A DNA stretch of 64,000 nucleotides from Burkholderia singularis (lineage in GTDB: Bacteria; Pseudomonadota; Gammaproteobacteria; Burkholderiales; Burkholderiaceae): assembly GCF_900176645.1 (NCBI RefSeq), contig NZ_FXAN01000045.1, positions 1-64,000 on the forward strand. Direction: 5' to 3'. The notes beneath the pieces were generated by a model. It searched no databases and had not been told where the DNA came from. It saw nothing but the letters and a program-made list of their open reading frames with translations. This document shows positions 1 to 23,753 of this stretch, piece after piece. The position numbers were made by a program, and so were the translations under genes. Every line of letters starts with the position of its first letter. Positions within the stretch are counted from its first letter, which is position 1.

Positions 1-63
1 GGGATCCAGGCGGGTGGGGTCGGGGGGGATTCGGTTGTCTTCCCTTTTGATGCGCTGGGGTGA
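1..63 (+). CDS. C-terminal end of an unidentified protein (partial)
   Basis: An open frame enters from the left edge and stops with TGA at 61-63. It encodes about 20 residues ending VVFPFDALG. Its stop overlaps the GTG of the next small frame in a GTGA arrangement, typical of translational coupling, and this is the main reason to believe either is real. The visible part is too short to assign a family. An opposite-strand frame starting at 222 is also open to the edge, so strand choice is uncertain. Confidence 0.3.
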   Translation, partial: GIQAGGVGGDSVVFPFDALG

Positions 64-236
64 CGATTCCCGCGTCTGTTTTAGATGTTGGACGACGCCC
101 TTCTTCAGTGCCTGAGGTGCTTGGGCTGGCGCAGGCCAATCTGCGCCGGATGGCCGACTCTTTCGATGATCAAACTGAATCGATGCTTGCTCGATCTGCC
201 TTGAACCTACTGCTATCGACATTCAAAAACTCCTAA
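60..236 (+). CDS. Small hypothetical protein (58 aa), coupled to the preceding gene
   Basis: GTG start at 60 overlaps the preceding stop as GTGA; the frame ends at TAA 234-236. The product is short and mostly helical by eye, with an amphipathic stretch LGLAQANLRRMADS and a leucine-rich C-terminus ending LLSTFKNS. No family was recognised. No clear Shine-Dalgarno is seen, which fits re-initiation from the upstream gene. The competing minus-strand frame (ATG at 222-220, preceded by TTAGGAG) is Pro/Gln/Arg-rich and looks less protein-like, but cannot be excluded. Confidence 0.35.
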   Translation: MTIPASVLDVGRRPSSVPEVLGLAQANLRRMADSFDDQTESMLARSALNLLLSTFKNS

Positions 237-615
237 GGAAACTCCAAATTTTCCCTCTACCTATGCGCGAATAATGGGTGAAGGGAAGAGGCGCAGCTCA
301 GGAGGCTAATGGATATAACGACGAAACCCGCGTCACTGCCCGAAAGCATCGCTCGTCGAGCGAAAGCGGGCGGTTTATCGCCATATTTAATTCCGCCATT
401 TTTGATGGCCGTCTCATCGCGGTTTTTCGTCGCGATGGTCAGTTTGACTAAATGTGCTGCGAATTTTTCGAGTGCCGGGATGTCGGGAAAAGCAGGGTGT
501 TGGGTGATTTTGACGAGTCGGAAAATCCGTGAAGCGTGACGGCGCGCGGATACTTGCTGAAAACGCGCGAGCGCACGCCGCCGGTGCAGCCGACCCGCCG
601 TCGTCGCTCGCCGCG
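237..615. other. Intergenic region at the end of the six-gene operon
   Basis: No convincing gene. An ATG at 309 follows AGGAGG closely and opens a 76-codon frame, but its composition is unlike neighbouring proteins. A short inverted repeat (ATCGCG...CGCGAT, about 416-436) could form a hairpin. The region lies downstream of the minus-strand operon ending at 616, so it may hold that operon's terminator, although no classic stem with a T-run was found. Confidence 0.4.
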
Positions 616-1863
616 CTAATCAGCCGCCTGCTCCGCTGGATCGGTCCGGCCCGCTTGCTTCCACTTCGCCGAGTACCGGAAATGGCTGCCCACCTCGATC
701 GCGACGCCCAATGCGATACCGCAAGCCGCGACCAGCAGTCCGACATGCCGGAACGCAATCTGATCGGCAAGCCAACCGGTCAGCAATGCGAAGAAGACGA
801 GCAAGCCGGTTCCGATCGCATTGCTGCCGGCCGTCAGCGTGACGATATCTTCCGGTTCGCTGGTTTGGATCAGCGCCGATTGCGCTGCTGTAAACGCAAC
901 TTCGAACAAGAAGATGAACGCGAAGTAAAGCGCGAGCAATTGCGTGCGCGATTGCGCGAAGGTCGTTGCATAAAGGCTCGCCGATGCCAGAAGGTTGACG
1001 GCGAAGCCGAAATGGCCGAGCTTCACGAGCTTCGGCATGATCGACACGGCGAGTGCGCCGAGCACGATCGCAATGCCGCTTGCGACCTGCAATTGCATGA
1101 CCGCGGTATCGGACAACGCCATCGTCCGGATCGGCAGGATGGTGCGCGCGGCGTTGTGAAAACCTTGGAATACGCCGGTTGCGACACACAGATAGCAGAA
1201 CGCGCTGAACAGCGCGCGGTGCTTCATGGCTGCGGCGGCGGCCGACGCGATCGCGCCGCGCGCAACAGGTGCAGCGCGCCGCTGCGGTGTCACGTTCGGT
1301 AGTAATGCGTAGCAACTCGCCGAGAACACGAATGCAGCCGCGCTGATCTGTGCGACGCCGAGCAACGACACGCGGCTCACGAGCACGCTGCCAAGCACGC
1401 CGCCAAGCACGCCGCCCAGGTAATACGACAGATTGAATGTCGATGATGCCAGTTCAAGCTGACGGCCTTCGAACAAGTATTTGACCATCACCACGCGGCT
1501 CGTTTTCGTGATCGCTTCGACAAAACCGCGCAGCAGGAAGCAACCAAGCACAGGTATCACCCAGCCGTGCGCGAGCAACAGCCCGATCGTCAATGACAGC
1601 ACGGCGCCGCTCAGATCGCTGGTTACGATGGTGCGACGCAAGCCGGCGGTCTCGCAGATGCGCCGGATCGTCGAGACGAGCAGCACCGGCAGGATCCATT
1701 GGAACGCAAACACCGACGCCGCGCCGATGCCTGAACCATGCACGCGGACCAGATTGGACGACACCGCGAGCAACAGAAAGAACGTGCCGGTGGCGCTGAC
1801 CAGCATCGCCAGCCATAGCAGCAGGAACCGTCGGTCGCGCGCGAGGAGTAGCCAATCCCGCAT
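616..1863 (-). CDS. MFS transporter, probable exporter of the operon's product
   Basis: A 415-residue, strongly hydrophobic protein with about 12 predicted membrane segments, most like drug or siderophore exporters of the major facilitator superfamily (EntS/DHA1-like). Translation starts at ATG 1863 behind AGGACAACT, a clear ribosome binding site, 12 nt after the stop of the ATP-grasp gene. As the last gene of a tight six-gene minus-strand operon it most likely exports the small molecule made by the other five enzymes, or protects the producer from it. That role is inferred from position; the substrate cannot be read from sequence. Confidence 0.8.
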   Translation of the reverse strand: MRDWLLLARDRRFLLLWLAMLVSATGTFFLLLAVSSNLVRVHGSGIGAASVFAFQWILPVLLVSTIRRICETAGLRRTIVTSDLSGAVLSLTIGLLLAHGWVIPVLGCFLLRGFVEAITKTSRVVMVKYLFEGRQLELASSTFNLSYYLGGVLGGVLGSVLVSRVSLLGVAQISAAAFVFSASCYALLPNVTPQRRAAPVARGAIASAAAAAMKHRALFSAFCYLCVATGVFQGFHNAARTILPIRTMALSDTAVMQLQVASGIAIVLGALAVSIMPKLVKLGHFGFAVNLLASASLYATTFAQSRTQLLALYFAFIFLFEVAFTAAQSALIQTSEPEDIVTLTAGSNAIGTGLLVFFALLTGWLADQIAFRHVGLLVAACGIALGVAIEVGSHFRYSAKWKQAGRTDPAEQAAD

Positions 1864-1875
1864 AGTTGTCCTTTC

Positions 1876-3159
1876 TCAATCGTTGATTTCGACCAGCTTG
1901 ATGCCCAGCACCCGCTCCACGTCCGCGTGCACTTGCGCGACCTGGCGTACCACGTCCGTGTAATTGTCCGCGGTCATGCGCACCACGCCGTGAACGCCAT
2001 AGTTGTTGTCCATTTTACGCAGCGCCATTCCGGCGCGGATATCCGAGCTGCCGGAATGCAGCCGCGGGAGAAACGCATCGAACCAGTCGGCCGGCAGATC
2101 GTCGCGCACCACGCAGTCGCGCTCGGCCGCGATGAACGAATGGCTCGCGGCCGTCAGCGTTGGCAGGCGCTCGATGTTCAGGCGCTCGCCCAGGTAGACG
2201 CGCACCAGCAGCTCAAACAGGTTGACGCCGCTCGATGCGCGAATCAGATCCGGAATCGAGCCGCCGGCGATGCGCGGATTGACTTCGACGAGCTGCGGGC
2301 CGTCATGAGTGTAGATGAATTCGACGTGGAAGATCCCGAGATCCAGCCCGAGCGTGCGCACTACGCGGATCGCATAATCGGCCGCCGCCGCGTATTGCTC
2401 GTCGCTCAGACCGGACGGAATCGTCGAGCCCATTTCGAGGATCGGATTGTGGCGGCCGGTCTTGCGCCGCACGATCGCAAGCGGTGCCCATTCGCCGTGG
2501 GCGCTCGCCGCGACTTCGATCGAGAACAGCGGCCCGAGCGCGATCTCTTCGATGATGAACGCGAGCGAGACTTCGTCCTTCAGGCCATCCTCCAGTGCGT
2601 CGAATTCCCTGACCGCTTGCTCGAAGTGCGCGGCGAGCCCGGCGTCGTCGTGAACCACCGAGGTCAGGATCTTGCCCATGCCGGTGGCCGGCTTGACGAT
2701 CGCCGGATAGCCGATCCTAGTGAGTGCGTGCCGTGCTGCGTCGAGCGACGTGACGAACGCGTATTTGACGCACGGCACGCCCGCTGCCGAGAGTAGATCG
2801 CGGCACGTTGCCTTGTTGCGGGCATTTTGAATGCCGGCGACGCTGGTGCCGCGCAGTTTTGCGCGCTCGGCCGCGATCGCGGCGGGCAGCGCACACATGT
2901 GCAGCGCGCTGAGCACCGTATCGACGCGGTGCTCGGCGGCGCATGCCGTGAGCGCCGCGTGAACGGCGTCGGCGTTTTGCGTGTCGGCGGCTTGCCAGGT
3001 GAAATCGACAAGGCGCTTGCGCTCGCCCTTGGCGGTGTCGTCAAGCAGCCAGTCGAACTTGCCGGACGTGATCAGCGACACGGTATGGCCGAACCGCTTC
3101 GCGGCTTCCAGCGCTTGAAGGCCGGGGCGGGTCGTTTCGACGAAAACTAGGTGAGCCAT
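1876..3159 (-). CDS. ATP-grasp ligase (amino-acid/carboxylate ligase type)
   Basis: A 427-residue ATP-grasp enzyme. The N-terminal third is a Rossmann-like preATP-grasp region starting MAHLVFVETTRPG. The central motif PAIVKPATGMGK near residue 150 is the ATP-binding lysine loop, and VEFIYT...VEVNPRIAGG near 290-315 carries the Mg-binding Glu and Asn. Such enzymes activate a carboxylate as acyl phosphate and join it to an amine, often forming dipeptides or amides. The frame runs open upstream to 3657, but that extension lies over the neighbouring FAD gene; ATG 3159, 11 nt after that gene's stop, is the sensible start. Here it probably forms the final amide, or an amino-acid conjugate, of the unknown product. 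Confidence 0.85.
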   Translation of the reverse strand: MAHLVFVETTRPGLQALEAAKRFGHTVSLITSGKFDWLLDDTAKGERKRLVDFTWQAADTQNADAVHAALTACAAEHRVDTVLSALHMCALPAAIAAERAKLRGTSVAGIQNARNKATCRDLLSAAGVPCVKYAFVTSLDAARHALTRIGYPAIVKPATGMGKILTSVVHDDAGLAAHFEQAVREFDALEDGLKDEVSLAFIIEEIALGPLFSIEVAASAHGEWAPLAIVRRKTGRHNPILEMGSTIPSGLSDEQYAAAADYAIRVVRTLGLDLGIFHVEFIYTHDGPQLVEVNPRIAGGSIPDLIRASSGVNLFELLVRVYLGERLNIERLPTLTAASHSFIAAERDCVVRDDLPADWFDAFLPRLHSGSSDIRAGMALRKMDNNYGVHGVVRMTADNYTDVVRQVAQVHADVERVLGIKLVEIND

Positions 3160-3170
3160 GAGGGGGTAGT

Positions 3171-4415
3171 TTATTCGTATTCGTGGGTGGAAACAGAAAT
3201 ATCGGACGACGGCTCGTTCGGCGCAAGCCCCGGACCTTGCGGCTCGCGGCCGCCTGCGCGCAAAGCTTGCAGGATCTGGCCGCCGCGCAGCGCGTATTGT
3301 CCGGTGGGCGTCAGGCTGTTGTCGTCGTATGGGTATGGATTCATCCCCATCACGAAGAGCGGCAGCGTTCCGGCGCCGGGCACGCGCAGCCGGCCGGCGC
3401 GATCCGTCTCTACGATGCCGCCTGCCGCGCACATTGGCACGTCGACGCCGTCGACGGTAAGCGGCAGCACGTTGCTTTCGTAGCCGAGCGCCTGAACGAT
3501 GTAGTCGGCTGCGTCCAGTTTCGGTGCGGCCGCCGCGATCGACGGCGCGCGCAGCAATGTGAAGCCGGACACGCGGCCCGCCGCGATGTCGACGAACGTG
3601 GCGCGCGCCGCATGGCGCAGGCCGGAGTAGCGGAACACGTTGCCGGTTTCGGGGCACTGATTGAGCGCCGGATCGGGCACGGCTTCCAGTGGATGATGAG
3701 GCTCGGCCGCGTATTCGTCGAAATTGCGGTAGAACAGCTTGACCGGGCCACGGTGCTGCAGCGTCACGGTGCTGCCGGCCGCCAGCGCACCCGGCGCGCG
3801 CAACAGATTCGCGATCGCATACGCGCTATGTGAGCCGCCGACGATATGCACGTTGACCGGTGCCTCGCGCCAGCGGGCGGGCACGCCGTGTTCGACGATG
3901 TGCCGGGACAAGAGCAGCTTGTCGCGCCAGCGTGCCAATTCGGCGTGCGGCCGTTCGCGGATGCCGGTGGCCAGCACCGCCATATGCGTATGAATGCGCG
4001 TGCCGTCGTCGAGATGCACGGTCGCTGCGTCGTGCTCCACGTCGATGCGCATCGCCCGGCGGCGTTGCCATACACGCGTCGCGCCCAATTGATCGCGGAT
4101 CGCGTCGCCAAACGGACGCAGCGCGTTCGCGAGCCGCGCGAGCGGGAAGCTGCCGGCTGACTGGCGCAGCAAGGTCACGTCGGCGTGGCGCAGCGCACCG
4201 CCGAATGCGCGCTCGGGGTGGACCCAGCCGAAGAAATCCGAGCCGTAGGAGTTCGAATCGATCCGATACGACGCGAAGCTGCCCGGACCGAGACGGTCTC
4301 CGGCATCGACGACGCCGATCCGGCATTCGAGCAAATCGGGATTGGCGCTCAGCAGGCCGGTGCCGCGCAGTCCGCATCCCACCAGTAGCAAGTCGAGGGC
4401 TTGATCGGGTTTCAT
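3171..4415 (-). CDS. FAD/NAD(P)-binding oxidoreductase resembling N-hydroxylating monooxygenases
   Basis: About 414 residues. The N-terminus LLLVGCGLRGTG is an FAD Rossmann loop. ATGIRERP near residue 150 is the second conserved flavoprotein segment, and VHIVGGSHSAYAIANLL near 185 is a second nucleotide-binding loop like that of ornithine/lysine N-monooxygenases. The C-terminal ALGYES segment also fits flavoprotein monooxygenases. The family match is to the broad FAD/NAD(P)-binding superfamily; N-hydroxylation is an inference. Start choice is weak: ATGs at 4445, 4427 and 4415 all lack a good ribosome site, and 4415 (MKPDQALD) sits just before the FAD loop. It is the fourth gene of the operon. 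Confidence 0.75.
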   Translation of the reverse strand: MKPDQALDLLLVGCGLRGTGLLSANPDLLECRIGVVDAGDRLGPGSFASYRIDSNSYGSDFFGWVHPERAFGGALRHADVTLLRQSAGSFPLARLANALRPFGDAIRDQLGATRVWQRRRAMRIDVEHDAATVHLDDGTRIHTHMAVLATGIRERPHAELARWRDKLLLSRHIVEHGVPARWREAPVNVHIVGGSHSAYAIANLLRAPGALAAGSTVTLQHRGPVKLFYRNFDEYAAEPHHPLEAVPDPALNQCPETGNVFRYSGLRHAARATFVDIAAGRVSGFTLLRAPSIAAAAPKLDAADYIVQALGYESNVLPLTVDGVDVPMCAAGGIVETDRAGRLRVPGAGTLPLFVMGMNPYPYDDNSLTPTGQYALRGGQILQALRAGGREPQGPGLAPNEPSSDISVSTHEYE

Positions 4416-4470
4416 GGTTGCTGGCATTGGTACGCGACGGCGCATGACCGTCGCGTGCCTGCTTTGCCGT

Positions 4471-5529
4471 TCAGGCTGCGAGCGAAGCGGGCTGAACCGT
4501 CGGCAGCATGACCATCATCCTGTCGCAGACTTCGGCCGCATGTTCGAGCCGGCGCGCCATGCCGAGCGCGATCGGCGCGAGCAGTTCGGGCTGCTTGTCG
4601 AGCAACGGCAGTACCACTTCGTTCATCCATCCGTGTGCGTGCTCCACGTCGACCACGGTGTGTTCGAGCAGATAGCGCATCCGGTCATCCGCCCAGCCGA
4701 CCCGGCGCCAACCCATGATCTGCTGGTCCAGGCGGCCTGGCACCATCAATTCGGTCGCGAGCATCATGCCGATTGCCTGCGGCAGCAACGCGCGATTGAA
4801 CACGGCGTGGAAGTACATGTTGGCAAGTCGCAGCTCTTCGACGCAGAAGCGTTCGATCTGCGACAGATAAACGTCGTCGACTTCGTCGAGCGCGCTCGTC
4901 ATGTCCAGGCGCAGTTGCCGGTGCATAGCGGCCGTTTCGCCGCGGCCCATTTCATCCCAGAAGTTCTTCGAAAATTCCGATTTGGCCGCGCCGTAGACGC
5001 CCGGCAGCATTTTGGCGAGGATGTCGCCGAAATGGATGTCGAACGGCGTTTCTTGAATCAGGAATTCGCGCAGTTGCGCGTAGCTTGCGGTGTCGCGCAA
5101 AAAGGCGAAGAGCGGGTGGCCGACGTTCGAGCGATGCGCTTGACAATGCCGTGTCGCCCACGCTTCGAAATCGGCCGGCGCGGGCAATGGGCCGAAGAAA
5201 TCGCAATAACACGCGGTTTCGCGTTCGGACCACGCATCCTCGAACATTTGCCGTAGCCGGTCGAAGCGGTGATGATCGAGATTGCGCCAGCCGGGTGTCC
5301 ACGGCGCGGCGATCCGGCCGGCATACAACGCGTAGAGGACGCGGTGCAACGCCATCTCGGCGCTGGCCTGTCTTTCGTCCGGCGTGCCGAACGCCGCCCT
5401 GCAGGCATCCTCGGCTGCCTGGAACAGGCGCTGCCACTCCTGCTCGGTCGAGACGGCCTCGATGCCGAGAAACAGCGGCCAGACGGGATGGCTCGTCGTT
5501 GCTTGGGAATGCGCGATCATGGGAGTCAT
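4471..5529 (-). CDS. Haem-oxygenase-like diiron oxidase (HDO family)
   Basis: A 352-residue all-helical protein of the iron-containing redox family related to UndA, BesC and the central domain of SznF. Candidate diiron ligands are visible: Glu160 and His166 in QETPFDIHFGD, Glu193 in WDEMGRGE, Glu260 in ATELMVPG, and the family signature His290-x3-Asp294-x2-His297 in HTVVDVEHAHGW. Members use O2 to cleave C-C bonds of amino acids or fatty acids, or to oxidise nitrogen. ATG 5529 follows GAGAGACAACC. It lies between the acyltransferase and flavoprotein genes, so it probably transforms an amino-acid intermediate. The exact reaction is not predictable from sequence. Confidence 0.85.
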   Translation of the reverse strand: MTPMIAHSQATTSHPVWPLFLGIEAVSTEQEWQRLFQAAEDACRAAFGTPDERQASAEMALHRVLYALYAGRIAAPWTPGWRNLDHHRFDRLRQMFEDAWSERETACYCDFFGPLPAPADFEAWATRHCQAHRSNVGHPLFAFLRDTASYAQLREFLIQETPFDIHFGDILAKMLPGVYGAAKSEFSKNFWDEMGRGETAAMHRQLRLDMTSALDEVDDVYLSQIERFCVEELRLANMYFHAVFNRALLPQAIGMMLATELMVPGRLDQQIMGWRRVGWADDRMRYLLEHTVVDVEHAHGWMNEVVLPLLDKQPELLAPIALGMARRLEHAAEVCDRMMVMLPTVQPASLAA

Positions 5530-5547
5530 GGTTGTCTCTCGATTTCG

Positions 5548-6936
5548 TTAGTTGTGTTGAAGCAATTGCGTATTCAGCCACTCGGCGACTTCATCCTCGG
5601 TGAAGAGCGACTGATTGAGGGCGCGGTGATAATCGGCGATGCAGCGGCGCAGATCGTCGTGTGCCGATGCGCTGCGCCGTTTCCACTCGGCTTCGAGCAG
5701 CGGATACAGCCGATCCGCAAGCTCGGCGGTCGGTTCGAGTCCGTGAGGCTCGAGCAAGCGGGTTTCCCGCAAAAAGCGCAGCAAACCATCCCGTCCACTG
5801 CGCACGCCGAACATCTTGACGAGACTTGAGCCGATCTCGTGCGGATCGAGGATGTCGAAAATCGTCGGTGCTTTGGCGAGCAGCTCGGTGCGTATGCCGC
5901 TCTGGATGCTGTGCGTGATCACGCCGGTGATCGCTTGCGCGGGATTCTCAAGCAATCCGTACAATCGTTCGCTGAGCCGGCTCAAAGCGAACAGGCCACG
6001 GTAGTCGAAGCCCGCGAGTTTGATGCCGTACAGCTTGCGCAATGCCATTGCCACTTCGGCAAGCGCCGGATGGCCGGCGCGATTCGCGAAGCCGCCAACC
6101 GACACGTCGACGCCCTGCAAGCCGAGCGACAGGCCCACGATCGCATTGCTCGTTGCCATGCCGAAATCGTCATGGAAATGGCCGTAGAAGCGCAGTGCCG
6201 GATGGCGCGTGACGAGCGTGCCGACGGTCTGCTCGAGTTGATGCGGCAGGCAGGTACCGGCGGTATCGACGAGCCGCACCTGTTCGAAGCCATGCCGGGC
6301 GACGAGATCGACCGCATTGACGAGATGGCCGTGGTCTGCGCGAAATGCATCGAGCAGACCGATCATCACGCCACCGCCTCGAAAGCGTTTGAGCGTCGGC
6401 AGAAACGCGTCGAGCCACTGTAGATTGAAATCGCGCCGCTCGGCCGTGGTGTGGGCGTCCCAATCGGCCTGATCGAAATCGATCGCGCAATCCTTGCGCA
6501 GAATCACCGGGAACAGATGTTGGACTTGTTGATCGGAGACCGAATGAATCGCGATCAGCCACACCGAATCCAGCGGCAGGCCATGTTCGTGCGCGATCCC
6601 GTCGAGTGCCGCGAACGATTGCTCCATCGTGATGCCGACATGCGAGATCACCATGAAGCGCACATGCGCGGCAATCCGGCCTGCCTGCTGCCGGCGCAGC
6701 AATTCGGCGAGGAACGCGATGTTGTGCGGGACGTCCGGAAACATGCCCACCACGATCGTGCGCACGCCGCACGCGGCAATGGCTTCCGCAAGATCGCATT
6801 TCGCTTCGATCGTCGGTGGCACGGTTGCGCGCTCGGCGCCTTCGCGCAGCGATTCGTCCATCAAATCGATATCGGACTTGAAGTAATACGTGCGTTCCGG
6901 CAGCACCATGCGTGTAATGCTCGAAGCGGTGCTCAT
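5548..6936 (-). CDS. DRE-TIM acyltransferase/lyase (homocitrate or isopropylmalate synthase-like)
   Basis: A 462-residue TIM-barrel protein of the HMGL-like family. The signature DESLREGAER near residue 28 replaces the usual DGTLRDG, and YGHFHDDFG (near residue 250) supplies the HxH metal ligands. Family members condense acetyl-CoA with a 2-oxoacid or run the reverse lyase reaction. There is no leucine or lysine pathway gene nearby, so it is not a housekeeping LeuA. It starts at ATG 6936, overlapping the previous stop as ATGA. In this operon it probably makes or cleaves the carbon skeleton of the unknown metabolite. The divergent first motif suggests an unusual substrate. Confidence 0.8.
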   Translation of the reverse strand: MSTASSITRMVLPERTYYFKSDIDLMDESLREGAERATVPPTIEAKCDLAEAIAACGVRTIVVGMFPDVPHNIAFLAELLRRQQAGRIAAHVRFMVISHVGITMEQSFAALDGIAHEHGLPLDSVWLIAIHSVSDQQVQHLFPVILRKDCAIDFDQADWDAHTTAERRDFNLQWLDAFLPTLKRFRGGGVMIGLLDAFRADHGHLVNAVDLVARHGFEQVRLVDTAGTCLPHQLEQTVGTLVTRHPALRFYGHFHDDFGMATSNAIVGLSLGLQGVDVSVGGFANRAGHPALAEVAMALRKLYGIKLAGFDYRGLFALSRLSERLYGLLENPAQAITGVITHSIQSGIRTELLAKAPTIFDILDPHEIGSSLVKMFGVRSGRDGLLRFLRETRLLEPHGLEPTAELADRLYPLLEAEWKRRSASAHDDLRRCIADYHRALNQSLFTEDEVAEWLNTQLLQHN

Positions 6937-7949
6937 GCGGCCACCTCGTCTGTCGCACGCGTGCGATGGTCGGTATCGACGGCGTAGCCGTTGGCGCGCA
7001 TCCAGTCGTCGTCGAGGAATTTACTCAGATACATATTGCCCGAGTCGGGCAGGATCACCACGATGTTCTTGCCCGGATAGCGGGCGCTGATGCGCGTGGC
7101 GACCGACATCGCGCTGCCGCTCGATCCTCCGCACAGAATCCCTTCTTCGCGCACGAGGCGGCGCGCCATCACGAACGATTCGCGATCGTCGACCTGGACG
7201 ATGTCGTCGATCACGCTGAAATCGACGGCCTTGACCAGATAATCCTCGCCGATGCCCTCGACCTGGTAGGTATGCGGCGTGCTCAGACGCCGGTGATGGA
7301 AGTATTCGTAGAACACGCTGCCGATCGGATCGACGCCAATGATCTGCACATTGGGATTGCGCTCTTTCAGATAGCGCCCAATGCCGCTGATCGTGCCGCC
7401 GGTTCCAATGCCGGAAACCAGAACGTCGATTTCCCCTTCGGTTTGCTCCCATATTTCGGGGCCGGTGCTCATATAGTGCGCTTCGGCATTCAGCGGGTTG
7501 TTGTATTGATCGGGGTAGATCGCGTGCGGCGTCGTCGAGGCGATTTGCCGGGCGACGCTGTAGTAGCTGCGAGGATCGGCGGCGTCGACTGCGGTGGGCG
7601 CCACGACGACTTGCGTGCCATAGGCCCGCATTCGAGAGATTTTTTCGCGGCTCATCTTGTCAGGAATGGTGACGATGCAACGCAGGCCATGTGCTGCCGC
7701 CACCATGCTGAGTGCCGCGCCGGTATTGCCGGACGAATTCTCCACCAACACCGAATCCTGCGTGAGTTCGCCGCTTTCCTGCATGCGCTTAACCAGATGC
7801 TTGACCAGGCGATCCTTGATGCTGCCCCCGGGGTTCATGAACTCGAGTTTGGCGTAGATGTTTGCAACATGCCCCTCGCCGAGTAACCGATTGATCTTGA
7901 CGAGTGGGGTATGGCCGATCGCATCGAGAATCGATTCTGAAGCCTTCAT
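6933..7949 (-). CDS. PLP-dependent cysteine synthase/CBS-like beta-replacement enzyme
   Basis: First gene of the operon, 338 residues, fold type II PLP enzyme. ILDAIGHTPLVKIN opens the protein; Lys45 in NPGGSIKDR is the PLP lysine, followed by SSGNTG, the phosphate loop GTGGTISG and GGSSGSA near the C-terminus. Members (CysK/CysM, CBS, SbnA, DcsD) replace the beta-substituent of serine, O-acetylserine or O-phosphoserine. The start at 7949 is fixed by GGAGT six bases upstream; a longer frame to 8054 lacks support. Heading a biosynthetic operon, it likely makes a beta-substituted alanine, or diaminopropionate-type building block, rather than bulk cysteine. Confidence 0.85.
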   Translation of the reverse strand: MKASESILDAIGHTPLVKINRLLGEGHVANIYAKLEFMNPGGSIKDRLVKHLVKRMQESGELTQDSVLVENSSGNTGAALSMVAAAHGLRCIVTIPDKMSREKISRMRAYGTQVVVAPTAVDAADPRSYYSVARQIASTTPHAIYPDQYNNPLNAEAHYMSTGPEIWEQTEGEIDVLVSGIGTGGTISGIGRYLKERNPNVQIIGVDPIGSVFYEYFHHRRLSTPHTYQVEGIGEDYLVKAVDFSVIDDIVQVDDRESFVMARRLVREEGILCGGSSGSAMSVATRISARYPGKNIVVILPDSGNMYLSKFLDDDWMRANGYAVDTDHRTRATDEVAA

Positions 7950-9032
7950 GTCATTACTCCGCTTATTAATTGGCATAACTAACAGATTGATGTTGGGAAC
8001 GACGCGTCCAGGCGTGTTCCGACATATCTGTCGGGCCGCCCTATGCCTGAGCATCCGACAAGAAAATGGATATGCGGAGATACCCTCGGTGCAGCGAGTG
8101 GTTTGCCCTGATCGCTGCGCTTATCACATTTAGTTCTATGGTTATTCCATAGAAAAAATAAAGCAGTGTCAATCCGTGATTTGGAAGGCCAAATCGAAGG
8201 GGCTAAGTAATGTATAGAAAATTAGGAGAACGGTCGTTCGAAAAAGACGGCTTTGAGAGGGCGATGGCAGATATTGAAGTGGGTGCCGGGAATCAGATAT
8301 TGATTTTGTTATTTTCCGGAAAGAGTTGCTGTCAAAATTAACAGGTTGCGAAATGGGAAGTTCTATTGATTTATTTTTGGACAAATCTATGAAGATTCAG
8401 ACGTAGGATAAGTTCGATAGGGGATTACCCGCGTTTGGCGCTGGTTGAACTACTTGCATTTCTCGATGATGACTGGTGCGCTTGCTTTTCGACACATTGT
8501 GAGGTGCGCTGCCGTGATCGCGCACTTCCTTGGGATTTAATTCGACGGCATGTGACGGTGCAATTCGCTGAATGATCGTAAGATTGATGGATGTGACGAG
8601 TGGCTCATGCCGCCTTGTGAAGTGGCTGCTTGTTCGGTGAAAATTAGTCCCTCGAGATCATCCGCGCTCGATATTTTCAGTATTCTTGAAATTGCGCTTT
8701 AAAGAAACTGCGCTATGTGACCTGGTCGAGCGAAAGACCTGCAGGAAACGCACGACACCAAAGTTCTTGACGACGATGTCCGATCCCGCCTTCTTTGGGA
8801 CGAACGGAACTTGGTCATCGGTGAGCCACTACGGCTGGCTGTTTTGCGGCAGGCTCGAAATCACTGCTCGGCAAAATCGGTACACGTCACATTACTTCGA
8901 AACGCTTCGCGCGCAGCAAACTTGAACACATTGAGTGCCTTGCGTCATTGAAGCCTTGTCGCGCGACTGTCGGCAATTGGAGCGGAAATCCCGCGGTTTC
9001 TATAAGGTCAGGCACAGTCGAGCTTGCTAATG
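7950..9032. other. A+T-rich intergenic region upstream of the orphan operon
   Basis: About 1.1 kb clearly poorer in G+C than its surroundings, especially 8130-8700. Two short frames (8169-8384 minus, 8686-8925 plus) begin only at TTG and look random. The left part must hold the promoter of the six-gene operon starting at 7949, including the palindrome listed separately. The composition suggests either a strong regulatory region open to H-NS-type silencing or remains of transferred DNA. No recognisable gene or mobile element was found. Confidence 0.5.
8134..8154. promoter_or_regulatory. Perfect 8-bp inverted repeat, possible operator
   Basis: TTCTATGG and CCATAGAA flank the 5-nt spacer TTATT, 185 nt before the first ATG of the six-gene operon and followed by an A-run. 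A dyad of this size in A+T-rich promoter DNA could bind a dimeric regulator. Read on the plus strand it could instead be a weak stem-loop, but no gene on that strand ends nearby. No regulator gene adjoins the operon. Confidence 0.35.
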
Positions 9033-9533
9033 TCAGCGGGTGACAAACGGCGGCGTAACGCCCGCCGCGCTCTCGCTGCGGGCGAATTTTCGTTCGCGTA
9101 ACAGCGCGACCCGGCAATTTTCGCGGGCCGTTTCGTTGCCGGCGTCGTCGAGCAGCACGAGATTCCCACGCATCACATTGAACGTGACGACCGCGCCGGT
9201 ATCGGACGCAAGTGCTTCAGGCGTGTGGTGCGAACCGGTTGGCTCGAGCACGGTGCTGCCTGGCCGGGCGACCCAGTCGTATTCGCGATAACGCCATTCG
9301 CCTTGCAGCGTATAGACGAATACCGGACCATCGTGCCGATGGCGCGGCAACGCGAGACCTACCGGCATCTTTAGGAGTACAGTCAGTTCGTCGCTTGCGA
9401 CATTGATGTGCAGATACTTGATTTCGAGACCAGGCAGCTTTGCATCCATTGGCAGCCACGGGCGATCGTCGTCCTGTACGCATGGAATCGGCGGCAAAAG
9501 GGCAGAGGGAATGAGCGGAGGCGGTTGATGCAT
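9033..9533 (-). CDS. Cupin-domain protein (2,4'-dihydroxyacetophenone dioxygenase/ChrR-like)
   Basis: About 166 residues with a single cupin barrel. The metal motif is seen in LPRHRHDGPVFVYTLQGEW and the second histidine in EPTGSHHTPEAL. The arrangement matches the DAD/ChrR-cupin group, which includes an Fe-dependent dioxygenase cleaving a hydroxylated acetophenone. The exact substrate is uncertain. The ATG at 9533 (MHQPPPLIP) is chosen over an upstream TTG. An MFS transporter of the aromatic-acid/sugar type lies immediately upstream on the same strand, so the two may import and degrade one compound. Confidence 0.65.
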   Translation of the reverse strand: MHQPPPLIPSALLPPIPCVQDDDRPWLPMDAKLPGLEIKYLHINVASDELTVLLKMPVGLALPRHRHDGPVFVYTLQGEWRYREYDWVARPGSTVLEPTGSHHTPEALASDTGAVVTFNVMRGNLVLLDDAGNETARENCRVALLRERKFARSESAAGVTPPFVTR

Positions 9534-9614
9534 GGCGTCGATATGGCGCTTCGTGCGCGGCAAAATGTGTGAAGCGCGATTATCGCAGACCGGGCCGTGG
9601 AATGCCGCGCGGGC

Positions 9615-15242: not shown

Positions 15243-16712
15243 TTAGAACACCGGCTGATAGCGGCCGAGTTCGACCTGCACCGATTTGATCCGAGTGTAG
15301 TGCTCGAGCGTCGTGATGCCGTTTTCTCGCCCGACGCCGGATTGCTTGTAACCGCCAACCGGCATTTCGGCGGGCGATTCTCCCCACGTGTTGATCCAGC
15401 AGATGCCGGCTTCGAGGCGATGGATCGCACGATGCGCGCGCGACAGGTTCTCGGTGACGACGCCGGCGGCGAGCCCGTAGTCGGTCGCGTTCGCGCGTGC
15501 GATCGCTTCGTCCTCCGTATCGAATACGAGGATGCTCATTACCGGGCCGAAGATTTCCTCGCGGACGATCTTCATATCGTCGCGACAGCCGTCGAACACG
15601 GTTGGCGCGACGTACTGGCCGTTCGCGAAATGATCGTGCACGAGGCGCTCACCGCCCGCGAGCAGCTTCGCGCCTTCGGCCTTGCCGCTTTCGATGTAGC
15701 CGAGCACCTTGTCGAGTTGCGCGGCGCTGGCGAGCGGGCCGAAATTCGTATCGGGGTCCGAAGGTTTGCCGATGCGGATCCGCGCGACGCGCTCGAGCAC
15801 GCGCGCGACGAAGGCATCCTTCACTGAGCGTTGGACGAAGACGCGCGTGCCGTTCGTGCATACCTGGCCTGCGCTGAAGAAGTTCGCGGTGACGGCGATG
15901 TCGGCTGCGCGGTCGAGGTCGGCGTCGTCGAATACGATGAGCGGTGACTTACCGCCGAGTTCCATCGTCACTTCCTTGAGCGACGACGCGCCTGCGATCG
16001 ACATGACTTTCTTGCCGGTTTCGACACCGCCCGTAAACGACACCTTCGCGATTCCCGGATGCGCCGTGAGCAGCGCGCCAACCGTGCCGTCGCCTTGCAC
16101 GACGTTGAACACGCCGGCGGGCACGCCTGCCTCGGTATAGATCTCGGCAAGCTGGAGCGCGGACAGCGGCGTGACTTCGCTCGGCTTGAAGATCATCGCG
16201 TTGCCGGCCGCGAGCGCGGGAGCGCTTTTCCAGCACGCGATCTGGATCGGATAATTCCATGCGCCGATGCCGCAGCACACGCCGAGCGGCTCGCGGCGCG
16301 TATAGACGAACGAGTCGGGGCGCAACGGCACTTGCAGCCCTTCGATCGCGGTCGCAAGGCCTGCGTAATACTCGATCACATCCGCGCCGGTGGCGATGTC
16401 GACGGCGCGCGTTTCCGCGATCGGCTTGCCGGTATCGCGCATTTCCAGCTCGGCAAGCACATCGTTGCGCTCGCGCAGCAACTCGACCGCGCGGCGCAGG
16501 ATCCGTGAGCGCTGCATCGCGCTCATCGCCGCCCATTCGCGCTGGCCTTCGTGTGCGGAGGCGACCGCGCGGTCGATGTCGTCGGCGCTCGCTTGTTGAA
16601 CCGTCGCGAGCAGTGCGCCCGTCGCGGGATCGAGCGTGTCGAACGTCTTGCCGCTAGTGGCATCGGCATAGGCGCCGGCGATGTAAAGGCGTTGCAGACC
16701 GAATACGGCCAT
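15243..16712 (-). CDS. betB: Betaine aldehyde dehydrogenase
   Basis: A 489-residue NAD(P)-dependent aldehyde dehydrogenase matching BetB in length. It has the cofactor segment [13 protein letters not shown], the catalytic glutamate in [11 protein letters not shown] and the nucleophilic cysteine in [12 protein letters not shown]. It converts betaine aldehyde to glycine betaine, the second step after BetA. The start at 16712 is fixed by AAGGAG seven bases upstream; a longer open frame to 16859 overlaps betI and is rejected. The gene lies 40 nt downstream of betI in the same operon. Confidence 0.95.
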
Positions 16713-19897: not shown

Positions 19898-21217
19898 ATG
19901 GCGAAGATGGTGATTACCGCTATCGGCTCGGCCGGAGACATCCATCCGATGCTCGGGATCGGTCGCGCGCTCGGCGCGCGCGGCCATCACGTCGTGTTCT
20001 GCACGCATCCGCAGTTCGAAGCCGACGCGCGGCATTGCGGCTTCGAATTCGCGCCGGTCGGCACTGCCGACGAATACGCACGCGCGATGGCGGACCCGGC
20101 GCTTTGGAATCCGCGCACGTCGTTCAAGACGCTGTGGCGCGTGATCGCGCCGAGCATGCAGCCGCACTTCGATACGTTGCGTGCATTCACCGATCGCGAC
20201 ACGGTGCTGATCGGCACGCTTTGGGCGTTTTCCGCCCGGATGATGCAAGAGCGGTACGGTACGCCGTATGTGTCAGTGCAGATCTCGCCGTCGACGCTGT
20301 TGTCCGCGCACGCGCCGCCGACGCACAAGCGCCTGACGATCCCGCGCCGCATGCCGCTCGTCCTGAAAGCGGGGCTGATGACGCTGATCGAGCGGCAGGT
20401 GCTCGATAAGGTGTGCGGCCCGCAGCTCAATGCGTTGCGCGCGTCGCTCGGCCTTGCGCCGGCCAAGCGTATTCTCGGCCGCTGGCTGCATTCGACGGAC
20501 GGCGTGCTGTGCTTGTTTCCGGACTGGTTCGCGGCGCCCCAGCCGGATTGGCCCGCCAATCACCTGCAAAGCGGTTTCCCGCTCTTCAACGATGCAGGCG
20601 AGCGCAACGCCGATCCGGAACTCGACGAATTCGTCGCGGCAGGCGAGCCACCCGTCGTGTTCACCGCGGGCTCGACGCTTGTCGATGCGCTCGAGTATGC
20701 GCGTGCGGTTGCCGAAGCAGTGCACGCGACGGGCGTGCGAGGGTTGCTGCTGACGCCCGATGTGGAGCGCGTTGCGCGCGACGCGGTATCGGCTGGCCTG
20801 CTCGTGCGCCGCTACGTGCCGCTGCGCACGTTGCTGCCGCGCTGTCGCGCGCTCGTTCATCACGGCGGTATCGGCACTGCATCGCTTGCATATGAAGCGG
20901 GTATTGCACAGGTCGTTACGCCGTTCGCGCACGATCAATTCGACAATGCGCAGCGCGTTGCCGACAGCGGCTGCGGGTTGCGCGTCGACGCGCCGGTGCG
21001 CGGCGTGGCACTTGCCGATGCATTGGCGCGGGTGCTTGGGAACGCGTCGATTGCGAAGCGCTGCGCGCAGGCCCGCGAGCGGATTCTGGCCGCGCCGGAC
21101 GGTTGTGTCGAAGCGGCGCGGTTCATCGAGCGTTTCGTACCTGCCGCCGGCGGCGTGGGTGCGCGGCTCGCGCCCGCGCCCGCGGTTGTCGGCGCACCGA
21201 TGGCGCGAGGCGTATGA
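19898..21217 (+). CDS. rhlB: RhlB, rhamnosyltransferase 1
   Basis: A 439-residue GT-B glycosyltransferase of the family-1 type. AIGSAGDIHPMLGIGRAL opens the acceptor domain and RALVHHGGIGTASLAYEAGIAQ is the nucleotide-sugar-binding signature. By family it transfers rhamnose from dTDP-L-rhamnose onto the RhlA product to give mono-rhamnolipid. Its TGA overlaps the ATG of the next gene (ATGA), so the exporter is translationally coupled. Confidence 0.93.
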   Translation: MAKMVITAIGSAGDIHPMLGIGRALGARGHHVVFCTHPQFEADARHCGFEFAPVGTADEYARAMADPALWNPRTSFKTLWRVIAPSMQPHFDTLRAFTDRDTVLIGTLWAFSARMMQERYGTPYVSVQISPSTLLSAHAPPTHKRLTIPRRMPLVLKAGLMTLIERQVLDKVCGPQLNALRASLGLAPAKRILGRWLHSTDGVLCLFPDWFAAPQPDWPANHLQSGFPLFNDAGERNADPELDEFVAAGEPPVVFTAGSTLVDALEYARAVAEAVHATGVRGLLLTPDVERVARDAVSAGLLVRRYVPLRTLLPRCRALVHHGGIGTASLAYEAGIAQVVTPFAHDQFDNAQRVADSGCGLRVDAPVRGVALADALARVLGNASIAKRCAQARERILAAPDGCVEAARFIERFVPAAGGVGARLAPAPAVVGAPMARGV

Positions 21218-22773
21218 GTACCGCTCCGGTGTTGCCGGCCGAGGCTGCGGCGCCTTCGGCGAACCGTGGTTTGCGGCTCGTGCTGCTGACGTTCGCGCTG
21301 TCGCTCGCGACCTTCATCGAAGTGCTCGATTCGACCGTCACGAACGTCGCGGTGCCTGCGATTTCGGGCAGTCTCGGTGTGTCGAACAGCCAGGGTACGT
21401 GGGTGATCAGCTCATATTCCGTCGCCGCGGCAATCGCAGTGCCGCTGACAGGCTGGTTCGCGCGGCGCGTCGGCGAGGCGCGCTTGTTCGTTGCGGCGGT
21501 GATCCTGTTCACGTTGACATCGCTGCTTTGCGCGTTCGCAACCGACATACGGATGCTGGTCGTCTGCCGCGCGCTGCAAGGATTGTTCTCCGGGCCGATG
21601 GTGCCGCTGTCGCAGACCATTCTGTTGCGCAGCTTCCCGCCCGAGCGGCGCACGCTCGCGCTTGCGCTATGGGCGATGACCGTGCTGCTCGCGCCGATCT
21701 TCGGGCCGGTGGTGGGCGGCTGGATCATCGATAACTTTTCGTGGCCCTGGATCTTCCTGATCAATCTGCCGATCGGCGTGTTCTCATTTGCCGTCTGCAC
21801 GACGTTGCTGAACCAGGAGCCGGGCGACAAGGCGGCAGGTCGGGTCGATGTCGTCGGTATTGTGCTGCTAATGGTCGGCGTCGGTTCGCTGCAGGCCGTG
21901 CTCGATCTCGGTCATGACCGAGGCTGGTTCGATTCCACGCTGATCACGACGCTTGCGATCGTCGCGGTGCTGTCGCTTGGGTCGTTACTGATCTGGGAGG
22001 CGGGCGAGGCCCATCCCGTCGTCGATCTGAGCCTGTTTCGAGATCGCACGTTTTCGTTCTGCGTACTGATCATTTCGCTTGGGATGATGAGTTTTTCCGT
22101 CGTCGGCGTGGTATTTCCGCTGTGGCTTCAGGCCGTGATGGGCTATACGGCATTCCATGCGGGGCTGGCGACCGCGCCCCTCGGCATCCTTGCACTCGTG
22201 TTTTCGATTCTCGTCGGCATCTATGCGAACCGCTTTGACGCACGCGTGCTCGTGACGTTCGGCTTTCTCGTGTTCGCGGGCGTGCTGTGGTGGGATGCGC
22301 ATTTCACGCTGACAATGACATTCACGCAGATCATCACGCCGGGCCTGATCCAGGGGATTGGCCTGCCGTGCTTCTTCATTCCGCTGACGGCGGCGACGTT
22401 GTCTCGAATTCCCGACGACAAACTTGCGGCGGCTTCAAGCCTGTCGAACTTCCTTCGGACGCTGTCGGCGGCATTCGGCACGGCGATGAGCGTGACGCTC
22501 TGGGACAACCGTGCGACCTATCATTACGATATCGTGTCGCAGGCGGTCAACCAGGCATCGGGCAACACGCAGCGTTTTGTCGGGACGCTCCATGCGATGG
22601 GATTCGACGGTGCGCGGGAGTTGAGCGTGCTGCATCAAGTCGTGATGCAGCAGGCCTATATGATGGCCACGGGCGACATGTTCTTCATCGCATGCGTCAC
22701 GTGCTTGGTGCTTGCCGCGATGATGTGGCTGACGCGCCCGAAACGCGGCGCCGCTGCCGCGTTCGGGCATTGA
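21214..22773 (+). CDS. DHA2-family MFS exporter (EmrB-like)
   Basis: A 519-residue, 14-helix exporter of the EmrB/QacA group. Motifs include LATFIEVLDSTVTNVAVPAI in helix 1, WVISSYSVAAAIAVPLTGW in helix 2 and GPVVGGWIIDNFSWPWIF in the antiporter region. The start at 21214 is set by the ATGA overlap with rhlB. With the NodT-like channel and EmrA-like adaptor encoded downstream it can form a complete EmrAB-TolC-type pump, here dedicated to rhamnolipid export by context. Confidence 0.9.
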   Translation: MSTAPVLPAEAAAPSANRGLRLVLLTFALSLATFIEVLDSTVTNVAVPAISGSLGVSNSQGTWVISSYSVAAAIAVPLTGWFARRVGEARLFVAAVILFTLTSLLCAFATDIRMLVVCRALQGLFSGPMVPLSQTILLRSFPPERRTLALALWAMTVLLAPIFGPVVGGWIIDNFSWPWIFLINLPIGVFSFAVCTTLLNQEPGDKAAGRVDVVGIVLLMVGVGSLQAVLDLGHDRGWFDSTLITTLAIVAVLSLGSLLIWEAGEAHPVVDLSLFRDRTFSFCVLIISLGMMSFSVVGVVFPLWLQAVMGYTAFHAGLATAPLGILALVFSILVGIYANRFDARVLVTFGFLVFAGVLWWDAHFTLTMTFTQIITPGLIQGIGLPCFFIPLTAATLSRIPDDKLAAASSLSNFLRTLSAAFGTAMSVTLWDNRATYHYDIVSQAVNQASGNTQRFVGTLHAMGFDGARELSVLHQVVMQQAYMMATGDMFFIACVTCLVLAAMMWLTRPKRGAAAAFGH

Positions 22774-22785
22774 CGGGGAGCCGCG

Positions 22786-23727
22786 ATGAAACTCGGGGCG
22801 CTGGTCATTCTTTATCATCCGACTGCCGATCATCTGGCGCGTATCGCGACGATTCGGAGCGAGTGCGACGCGCTCGTCGTCGTCGACAATACTCCGCAGC
22901 CCGATCGGGAGGCGCGCGCACTGGCTGAGCGAGACGGTATCACGCTATTGCATCACGGCAATCGTGGCGGCATCGCCGGCGGGTTCAACGTGGGGCTTGA
23001 GGCGTTGTTTCCGGACGTCGATGCGGTTGCGTTGTTCGATCAGGACTCGACGTTGCCGGATCGATATTTCCCGATGATGCGCGAGATCGGCTCGGGGCTC
23101 GCGCCGCGACCGTTCATCGTCGGTCCGCGTATTTTCGACGAGAACGGGCAATGCTTCCTGCCCGAACTGATGACGAACGGCGTGACGGTGCGCCGCGTGC
23201 GGTTGGAGCCGGGCGGCGAGATGCAGCGCTGTGCGTTTCTGATCTCGTCGGGAAGCGTGGTGTCTCGAGAAGCGTTCCAGTTGCTCGGGCGCTTCGACGA
23301 GTCGCTCGTCATCGATCACGTCGATACCGAATACTGCTTTCGCGCGCTCGCGAGCAATGTACCGCTTTACGTGGTGCCGTCGCTCGTGCTGTCGCACAGG
23401 ATCGGCGTGCGGCAGCGGCACCGGATCGGGCCGTTCGAATTCACGTCGATGAACCATCCGTGGTATCGCCGCTATTACAGCGCGCGCAATGCGGTGCGGC
23501 TCGGCATTCAATATGGCATGCGTTTTCCCGTGGCGATCGTGCCGAATTTGCTGACCGTCTGGCAAATCGTGCAGATCATGTTGTACGAGCACGATAAGCG
23601 GACGAAGCTGAAGGGTATTCTGCTGGGCGTCGCTGACGGATTGCTGGGGCGGCTCGGCGCGCTTGAGGATGTGCGGCCGCAGTGGACGGCGCGTGTCGCG
23701 CGGCGCAGAGCAGCGCGTCACGGATGA
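22786..23727 (+). CDS. rhlC: RhlC, rhamnosyltransferase 2
   Basis: A 313-residue GT2-family transferase with the N-terminal fold GALVILYHPTADHL, the VVVDNTP turn, HGNRGGIAGGFNVGL and the acidic motif LFDQDSTLPDRYF. It adds the second rhamnose to make di-rhamnolipid. In Pseudomonas rhlC is unlinked to rhlAB; here, as in Burkholderia, it lies in the same operon, 12 nt after the exporter. Starts at ATG 22786 behind a GGGGAG ribosome site. Confidence 0.92.
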   Translation: MKLGALVILYHPTADHLARIATIRSECDALVVVDNTPQPDREARALAERDGITLLHHGNRGGIAGGFNVGLEALFPDVDAVALFDQDSTLPDRYFPMMREIGSGLAPRPFIVGPRIFDENGQCFLPELMTNGVTVRRVRLEPGGEMQRCAFLISSGSVVSREAFQLLGRFDESLVIDHVDTEYCFRALASNVPLYVVPSLVLSHRIGVRQRHRIGPFEFTSMNHPWYRRYYSARNAVRLGIQYGMRFPVAIVPNLLTVWQIVQIMLYEHDKRTKLKGILLGVADGLLGRLGALEDVRPQWTARVARRRAARHG

Positions 23728-23753
23728 CAAGGTTGACGAGGAGGCGGTCGAAT

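What the first reader, a model, noticed from the sequence alone, without database searches (positions are those of the whole stretch)
616..7949. Orphan operon combining diiron oxidase, N-hydroxylase-like flavoprotein, CBS-like enzyme, DRE-TIM enzyme and ATP-grasp ligase
Six genes on one strand, with gaps of at most 55 nt or an ATGA overlap, encode a coherent pathway: PLP beta-replacement, acyl transfer or lyase, haem-oxygenase-like diiron oxidation, flavin oxidation, ATP-grasp ligation and export. I do not know any described cluster with this set. Partial parallels from established knowledge are the bes cluster (ATP-grasp, HDO and transporter; beta-ethynylserine) and the cycloserine dcs cluster (CysK-like, ATP-grasp and transporter). 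There is no NRPS or PKS gene, so the product should be a small modified amino acid or dipeptide. A flavin enzyme beside an HDO also leaves N-oxidised or N-N products open.
Basis: partly seen in the sequence, partly recalled or inferred. Interest (0 to 1): 0.8.

Follow-up and report, generated by a model that had tools for sequence, protein, structure and literature searches.

The report
Travelling operon for oxidised amino-acid product
Six neighbouring genes, which travel together between distantly related bacteria, look like a compact production line that builds, oxidises, couples and exports a small unusual amino acid or dipeptide whose identity is still unknown.

Summary
Six minus-strand genes (616-7949) encode a CBS-like PLP enzyme, a DRE-TIM metalloenzyme, a haem-oxygenase-like diiron oxidase (HDO), a flavoprotein, an ATP-grasp ligase and an MFS transporter, with gaps of -4 to 25 nt. 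It is not a one-strain oddity: of 14 family loci found among 84,980 species genomes, 6 have all six genes, 5 in identical order (Burkholderia, three Pseudomonas, Tistrella). All 14 pair the DRE-TIM gene with an HDO gene; four proteins fuse the two. Components co-vary (r 0.89-0.98), yet the family is rare (2 of 398 genomes of the taxonomic family). The HDO is closest to HrmI, a lysine N-oxygenase; the flavoprotein has an N-hydroxylase-like fold; the ligase is nearest L-amino-acid ligases. Correction: the DRE-TIM enzyme keeps the metal/Arg site but lacks the Glu and His motifs of homocitrate and isopropylmalate synthases in 34 of 34 sequences, so it should not be called one. Most likely this is an NRPS-free pathway to an N-oxygenated amino acid or dipeptide; all chemistry is inferred. 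It is a new variant of the known HDO + ATP-grasp cluster kind; no product was found in the papers searched.

The parts
6933..7949 (-). CysK/CBS-like PLP enzyme, 338 aa, catalytic core only (no CBS domain match)
   Evidence: PF00291 E 9.8e-79; nearest solved structures are cystathionine beta-synthases; below the cut-offs of the CBS, SbnA and cysteate synthase equivalogs; nearest paralogue in own genome 40%
5548..6936 (-). DRE-TIM metalloenzyme, 462 aa, non-canonical active site
4471..5529 (-). Haem-oxygenase-like diiron oxidase (HDO), 352 aa, HrmI-related
   Evidence: PF14518 E 4.2e-37; HrmI E 3.2e-46 with the family profile; E160 E193 H203 H290 D294 H297 invariant in 28
3171..4445 (-). FAD/NADPH flavoprotein, 424 aa, class B monooxygenase-like fold
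1876..3159 (-). ATP-grasp ligase, 427 aa
   Evidence: PF13535; nearest solved: L-amino acid ligase BL00235 and BacD; start at 3159
616..1863 (-). MFS transporter, 415 aa, presumed exporter
   Evidence: PF07690; a homologue follows the ATP-grasp gene in 6 of 14 family loci
7950..9032 (.). Upstream intergenic region, GC 0.48, presumed promoter; no Fur-box signal
   Evidence: the sigma-70 scan found no promoter-like site here and no excess in 1-9600 (2 found, 2.9 expected)

Best explanation
The six genes are a self-contained, horizontally mobile biosynthetic operon that makes a small N-oxygenated non-proteinogenic amino acid or dipeptide without an NRPS and exports it. Proposed steps: (1) the CBS-like enzyme makes a beta-substituted alanine from serine or an activated serine; (2) the HDO uses O2 at a diiron site to N-oxygenate an amine of an amino-acid substrate, as its relative HrmI does to lysine; (3) the DRE-TIM enzyme, the constant partner of the HDO here, makes or breaks a C-C bond next to that chemistry with its metal/Arg site, probably not as an acetyl-CoA Claisen synthase; (4) the flavin monooxygenase oxidises further; (5) the ATP-grasp ligase forms an amide with a second amino acid; (6) the MFS protein exports the product. 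Shown here: operon structure, families, predicted folds, conserved ligand residues, synteny, co-variation, fusion. Inferred: every reaction, their order, the direction of transport and the product.
For: Operon structure. Synteny: 14 family loci, 14 with DRE next to an HDO, 9 with flavoprotein and ATP-grasp, 8 with the CBS-like gene, 6 with all six. Four fused proteins, DRE then HDO. Distance correlations r 0.89-0.98 over 10 gene pairs. HDO: HrmI far above the other solved HDOs, 161 bits against 42 for SznF; 3H/3C ligands invariant in 28; HrmI turns lysine into a nitro amino acid (PMC13108848, passages). Flavoprotein model matches PvdA, KtzI and SidA N-hydroxylases. Ligase nearest L-amino-acid ligases; both Streptomyces loci carry a second ATP-grasp gene, with an LAL_C2 domain shown in L029. 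CBS-like + HDO recur without DRE in B. stagnalis. A MAG locus puts DRE, HDO and CBS-like next to AMP-binding, DAP-epimerase and C-T-TE genes.
Against: HDO reactions are not predictable from similarity: the review notes that HrmI and BesC act on nearly identical substrates with different outcomes. The cluster HDOs do not fall with the HDOs that carry HrmI's own VPRR motif (L047, L077); they have VPGR and form another branch. In the cyanobacterial locus L030 the HDO is only 26% identical and its first ligand position aligns as His, not Glu. HrmI's substrate-binding residues could not be compared (paper not held). Small flavin monooxygenases rank above PvdA and bacillithiol and thioredoxin reductases close to it, so the flavoprotein may do another oxidation or be a reductase. 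CBS-like genes were not found in 6 of 14 loci (one a 6 kb contig), so that step may not belong to the core. The operon's GC gives no sign of recent import (0.629 against 0.645). No metabolite is known.
Confidence: 0.5

Rival explanations
1. Nucleophile-release logic like D-cycloserine biosynthesis: the HDO N-oxygenates a donor amino acid, the DRE-TIM enzyme acts as a lyase and releases a small N-oxy nucleophile, the CBS-like enzyme couples it to serine, and the ATP-grasp enzyme cyclises or ligates the result.
For: DRE lacks the Claisen motifs but keeps the metal site, as lyases of the fold do (recalled); DRE-HDO fusions; a DAP-epimerase-like gene beside CBS-like + DRE + HDO in a MAG, as recalled for dcs; CBS-type enzymes can use serine itself (recalled), so no serine acetyltransferase is needed.
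Against: No dcs sequence was compared (recalled only; one search found no paper); the CBS-like gene is not seen in 6 of 14 DRE-HDO loci; in B. stagnalis CBS-like + HDO occur without DRE in the 17 kb searched, so DRE would not be the source there.
Confidence: 0.17
2. Alkylmalate-type route: DRE condenses acetyl-CoA with a 2-oxo acid and the HDO oxidatively decarboxylates the product, in the manner recalled for the diiron enzyme PsfC of the Pseudomonas fosfomycin route.
For: Fold of homocitrate/isopropylmalate synthase, Arg/metal residues kept; fusion of DRE with HDO suggests direct hand-over; a His two residues before the lost one is present in 28 of 34 sequences and might take over.
Against: The Glu position holds Leu or Ile in 34 of 34, and the His of FAHxSGIH is absent in 34 of 34; the HDO is nearest an N-oxygenase. 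PsfC is of a different superfamily (recalled).
Confidence: 0.15
3. Metal-chelating product (siderophore or metallophore) built from N-hydroxylated amino acids.
For: Flavoprotein shares the fold of siderophore N-hydroxylases; MFS transporter.
Against: No Fur-box signal above shuffles upstream of the operon in five loci. No receptor gene was among the neighbours scanned, but only some neighbours were scanned.
Confidence: 0.1
4. Catabolic or primary-metabolic operon with an importer.
For: DRE-TIM and CBS-like folds are common in primary metabolism; a second non-canonical DRE group (Xenorhabdus, Agrobacterium) sits simply beside a membrane transporter and a LysR regulator; the direction of MFS transport is not known.
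Against: Very patchy distribution (2 of 398), ligase nearest dipeptide-forming enzymes, flavoprotein family of only 33 listed homologues, at least 13 of them on contigs whose length is shared with DRE or HDO homologues.
Confidence: 0.08

Closest known systems
Hormaomycin/belactosin HDOs HrmI and BelK
   Same: HDO is nearest HrmI by sequence over nearly full length; same 3H/3C ligands; amino-acid pathway
   Different: Separate branch from the HDOs with HrmI's VPRR motif; a DRE-TIM partner, sometimes fused, is not mentioned for HrmI in the passages read
Mangotoxin operon mboABCDEF
   Same: HDO, ATP-grasp ligases and a transporter in one operon (PMC13185094 sections 5, 7, 8; PMC3355146 passages)
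   Different: mbo has a flavin/Fe2S2 reductase, two ligases, an arginine deiminase and an EamA transporter; no CBS-like, DRE-TIM or class B flavoprotein gene
beta-Ethynylserine (bes) cluster (recalled)
   Same: HDO, ATP-grasp ligase, transporter
   Different: bes uses a halogenase and a PLP lyase; no DRE-TIM enzyme (recalled)
D-cycloserine (dcs) cluster (recalled)
   Same: CysK-like enzyme, ATP-grasp ligase, transporter, N-oxidation step
   Different: dcs uses a haem enzyme and an arginase-like hydrolase; no HDO or DRE-TIM (recalled)
Homocitrate / 2-isopropylmalate synthases
   Different: Glu and His motifs missing; His289 where three of four references have Asn

Membership tests
Haem-oxygenase-like diiron oxidases (HDO) | Fold family PF14518 and 3 His / 3 carboxylate ligands | tested here: met
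   PF14518 E 4.2e-37; six ligands invariant in 28 sequences
HrmI/BelK lysine N-oxygenases | Nearest characterised relative by sequence | tested here: met
   161 bits against 42 for the next, SznF; solved structures only
HrmI/BelK lysine N-oxygenases | Orthologue-level signature (VPRR, NYWDEMGNG) as printed for HrmI | tested here: not met
   Window has VPGR and NFWDEMGRG; L047 and L077 carry VPRR and branch apart
HrmI/BelK lysine N-oxygenases | N-oxygenation of lysine | not testable with these tools
   needs an enzyme assay
Claisen-type DRE-TIM synthases (homocitrate, isopropylmalate) | TIM barrel with Arg and metal ligands | tested here: met
Claisen-type DRE-TIM synthases (homocitrate, isopropylmalate) | Catalytic Glu (SPED/CED motif) and His (FAHxSGIH); roles recalled | tested here: not met
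   Glu position Leu or Ile in 34 of 34, His position not His in 34 of 34; equivalog cut-offs not reached
Cystathionine beta-synthase | NCBIfam equivalog TIGR01137 | tested here: not met
   415.8 bits, cut-off 510.25; core alignment is CBS-like
SbnA 2,3-diaminopropionate enzyme / cysteate synthase | NCBIfam equivalogs TIGR03945 / NF053679 | tested here: not met
   254.9 of 349.95 and 345.7 of 600 bits
Class B flavin N-hydroxylases (PvdA/KtzI/SidA) | Two-dinucleotide-domain fold with FAD and NADPH glycine motifs | tested here: met
Class B flavin N-hydroxylases (PvdA/KtzI/SidA) | Sequence match to an N-hydroxylase family | tested here: inconclusive
   no Pfam or NCBIfam family above cut-off; profile search gives only weak oxidoreductase hits, SsDesB at E 0.065
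L-amino acid ligases (ATP-grasp) | Nearest solved relatives and ATP-grasp_4 domain | tested here: met
   BL00235 E 1.1e-14, BacD E 8.4e-14; PF13535
L-amino acid ligases (ATP-grasp) | Dipeptide formation | not testable with these tools
   needs an enzyme assay
Mangotoxin (mbo) operon | HDO + MboB reductase + two ligases + deiminase + EamA | tested here: not met
   gene families against PMC13185094 and PMC3355146
D-cycloserine (dcs) cluster | Haem N-hydroxylating enzyme, arginase-like hydrolase, CysK-like, racemase, ATP-grasp (recalled) | not tested
   no dcs sequence fetched; one search found no paper

The most novel reading that the evidence does not exclude
The DRE-TIM/HDO pair is a new two-step catalytic unit: the HDO N-oxygenates an amino acid and the DRE-TIM enzyme, with a metal site Glu/His/His plus an invariant extra His (E32, H253, H255, H289) and no Claisen motifs, uses the N-oxidised (nitro, nitronate or oxime) carbon as electron sink to make or break a C-C bond, that is a nitro-aldol or retro-aldol in place of acetyl-CoA chemistry. 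This would be a new reaction class for DRE-TIM enzymes and a new source of N-O building blocks.
Probability: 0.14. Interest if true: 0.85.

Novelty: new variant of a known kind. Interest (0 to 1): 0.6.

Why it matters
HDOs are a large superfamily with only about a dozen characterised members (PMC13108848, section 4). This operon gives an HDO with a constant, sometimes fused, partner of another enzyme class whose active site has lost its textbook motifs. A small, complete operon with environmental carriers makes the reaction and the product directly testable, and the product may be a new amino-acid antimetabolite.

Tried and rejected
Mangotoxin operon: considered because P. avellanae carries the cluster; rejected, the gene set differs. 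Homocitrate synthase (the name some sources give the DRE homologues): rejected by missing motifs. Siderophore with Fur control: no signal. Phosphonomethylmalate synthase as closest DRE relative: suspected from memory for L037-L042; L037, L038, L039, L041 and L042 instead form a second non-canonical group with the DETLREG[AS]ER motif, and Winslowiella L038 pairs it with a D-type HDO, an aminotransferase and an NTP-transferase-like gene; their function stays open. DRE tree: the 34 cluster rows are one side of a branch but with weak support (45/0, 50% of bootstraps, long branches), so a single origin is not shown. HDO tree (quick method): the 28 A3 rows need two changes against the rest; the label means homologue in A3, not a proven DRE partner (Myxococcus P0212, for example, shares no contig length with the DRE list); HrmI itself was not in the tree because its sequence was not held as a file. 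Insertion-site test: four operon-free Burkholderia stretches match parts of one flank of TSV86 but not its other flank, so the junction was not resolved. Tistrella first looked like a DRE-HDO fusion in a greedy ORF call; a second caller showed two overlapping genes in different frames, so it is not counted. The Deltaproteobacterial locus L035 has its DRE match in two pieces in different frames; it was counted for presence only. Viral contigs: 39 pattern matches, no relative. Paper searches listed no paper that I recognised, from titles and abstract openings, as describing this gene set; two listings were capped (30 of 115 papers, 8 of 358).
Full report
What is there. The window is the first 64 kb of contig C21 of a 5.54 Mb genome, a Burkholderia close to strain TSV86 (operon proteins 95-98% identical; strain named). 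Six minus-strand genes occupy 616-7949: CBS-like 6933-7949, DRE-TIM 5548-6936, HDO 4471-5529, flavoprotein 3171-4445, ATP-grasp 1876-3159 and MFS 616-1863. The gaps are a 4-nt ATGA overlap, 18, 25, 11 and 12 nt (the 11 by subtraction with the ATG at 3159). Operon GC is 0.629 against 0.645 for window 9001-64000, so composition gives no sign of recent import.

Not a single-strain set. A scan of one genome for each of 84,980 species with the DRE alignment (three peptide patterns, so a lower bound) gave 22 loci, 14 of which belong to the family (L022-L035; the other 8 match at 27% identity or less). Counted over these 14: DRE next to an HDO 14 of 14 (in L030 the HDO is distant, 26%, but PF14518); flavoprotein and ATP-grasp 9 of 14 (ATP-grasp cut by the contig end in L035); CBS-like 8 of 14; a homologue of the same MFS gene 6 of 14; all six genes 6 of 14 (L022-L026, L028). 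The order is identical in five; in Actinomadura (L028) the CBS-like gene follows the transporter and carries CBS domains. DRE identities to the window are 73-74% in Pseudomonas, 66% in Tistrella (plasmid pTM3), 58% in Actinomadura and 55-56% in Streptomyces.

It is rare. Close orthologues were found in 2 of 65 genomes of the genus (all 65 also have weak matches, 88.8 bits or less, to other DRE-TIM genes), 2 of 398 of the family, 1 of 369 of the class and 1 of 398 of the phylum, each count including the window's own genome. Among 72,556 plasmid records only Tistrella pTM3 exceeds 60% identity. In protein databases 33 of 100 DRE homologues share an exact contig length with an HDO homologue, against a null mean of 0.48 and maximum of 4 in 2000 jittered trials; 13 of 33 flavoprotein homologues share one with either list. 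Pairwise distances of the components correlate at r = 0.889-0.977 over 15 to 45 pairs of loci; the window and nine loci were used, and L022 (near copy), L030, L033, L034 and L035 were left out, three of them the most divergent ones. Loci share ancestry, so these values are descriptive. Four proteins fuse DRE (N-terminal) with HDO (C-terminal): P0073, P0095, P0099 and P. fontis L027.

The HDO. All six predicted ligands (E160, E193, H203, H290, D294, H297) are invariant in 28 homologues. With one sequence the best solved relative is HrmI at E 2.8e-25, with the family profile 3.2e-46, far above SznF at 5e-10, aligned over positions 28-340 of 345. HrmI and BelK turn the side-chain amine of lysine into a nitro group, through N6-hydroxylysine in HrmI (PMC13108848, passages). 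But two other HDOs that carry HrmI's own motifs (L047 from Agrobacterium vitis beside a desaturase, a 2OG-Fe enzyme and dapF; L077) form their own branch, and the cluster HDOs another. N-oxygenation is therefore the best guess, not a transfer between orthologues.

Reading. A small amino-acid pathway with an N-oxygenating HDO as centre fits best (0.5). The rivals are a nucleophile-release logic like D-cycloserine (0.17), an alkylmalate route (0.15), a metallophore (0.1) and catabolism (0.08). Clusters with an HDO and a stand-alone ATP-grasp ligase are a known kind: Badding et al. report 1447 HDO sequences near an ATP-grasp ligase and at least 25 unique clusters (PMC13185094; sections 5, 7 and 8 read, other passages by search). 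I could not see their list, so the claim that this set is undescribed rests only on the searches in an open-access library that lacks most subscription papers. Of PMC13108848 I read section 4 and passages; of PMC3355146 passages.

Noticed in passing
window 19898-26525 (+): A glycosyltransferase, MFS transporter, an ORF without Pfam match, an outer-membrane efflux protein and a HlyD-type protein in a row; recalled as the layout of Burkholderia rhamnolipid clusters.
   Followed up: no
L046 6890-14964 (Burkholderia stagnalis plas1): A different cluster: CBS-like enzyme, HDO of the same family, GntB-like desaturase, DAO-family oxidase, metallo-beta-lactamase fold, DUF3291 protein and PLP decarboxylase, with a LuxR-type regulator at 15529-16224.
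   Followed up: partly
L038 5530-12795 (Winslowiella iniecta): TetR, D-type HDO, class V aminotransferase, NTP-transferase-like protein, non-canonical DRE-TIM enzyme, membrane transporter and GNAT in a row: a second, distant HDO + DRE-TIM pairing.
   Followed up: partly
L037 8840-12428, L039 8896-12196: Non-canonical DRE-TIM enzyme (DETLREG start, no Glu motif found) between a divergent LysR regulator and a Mem_trans transporter, with no HDO match in the fetched stretch.
   Followed up: partly
L047 6550-10481 (Agrobacterium vitis plasmid): HDO with HrmI's own motifs between a desaturase, a 2OG-Fe dioxygenase and a dapF-like epimerase; may be a nitro-amino-acid cluster.
   Followed up: no
L031 838-12085 (Betaproteobacteria MAG): DRE + HDO + CBS-like beside an AMP-binding enzyme, a DAP-epimerase-like protein and a C-T-TE NRPS gene, so the same unit may feed an NRPS.
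   Followed up: partly
window 8569-8942 against L022 6191-8362: The intergenic region upstream of the operon differs from TSV86: L022 6191-6781 and 7090-8362 have no match in the window although both sides are 93-94% identical.
   Followed up: no
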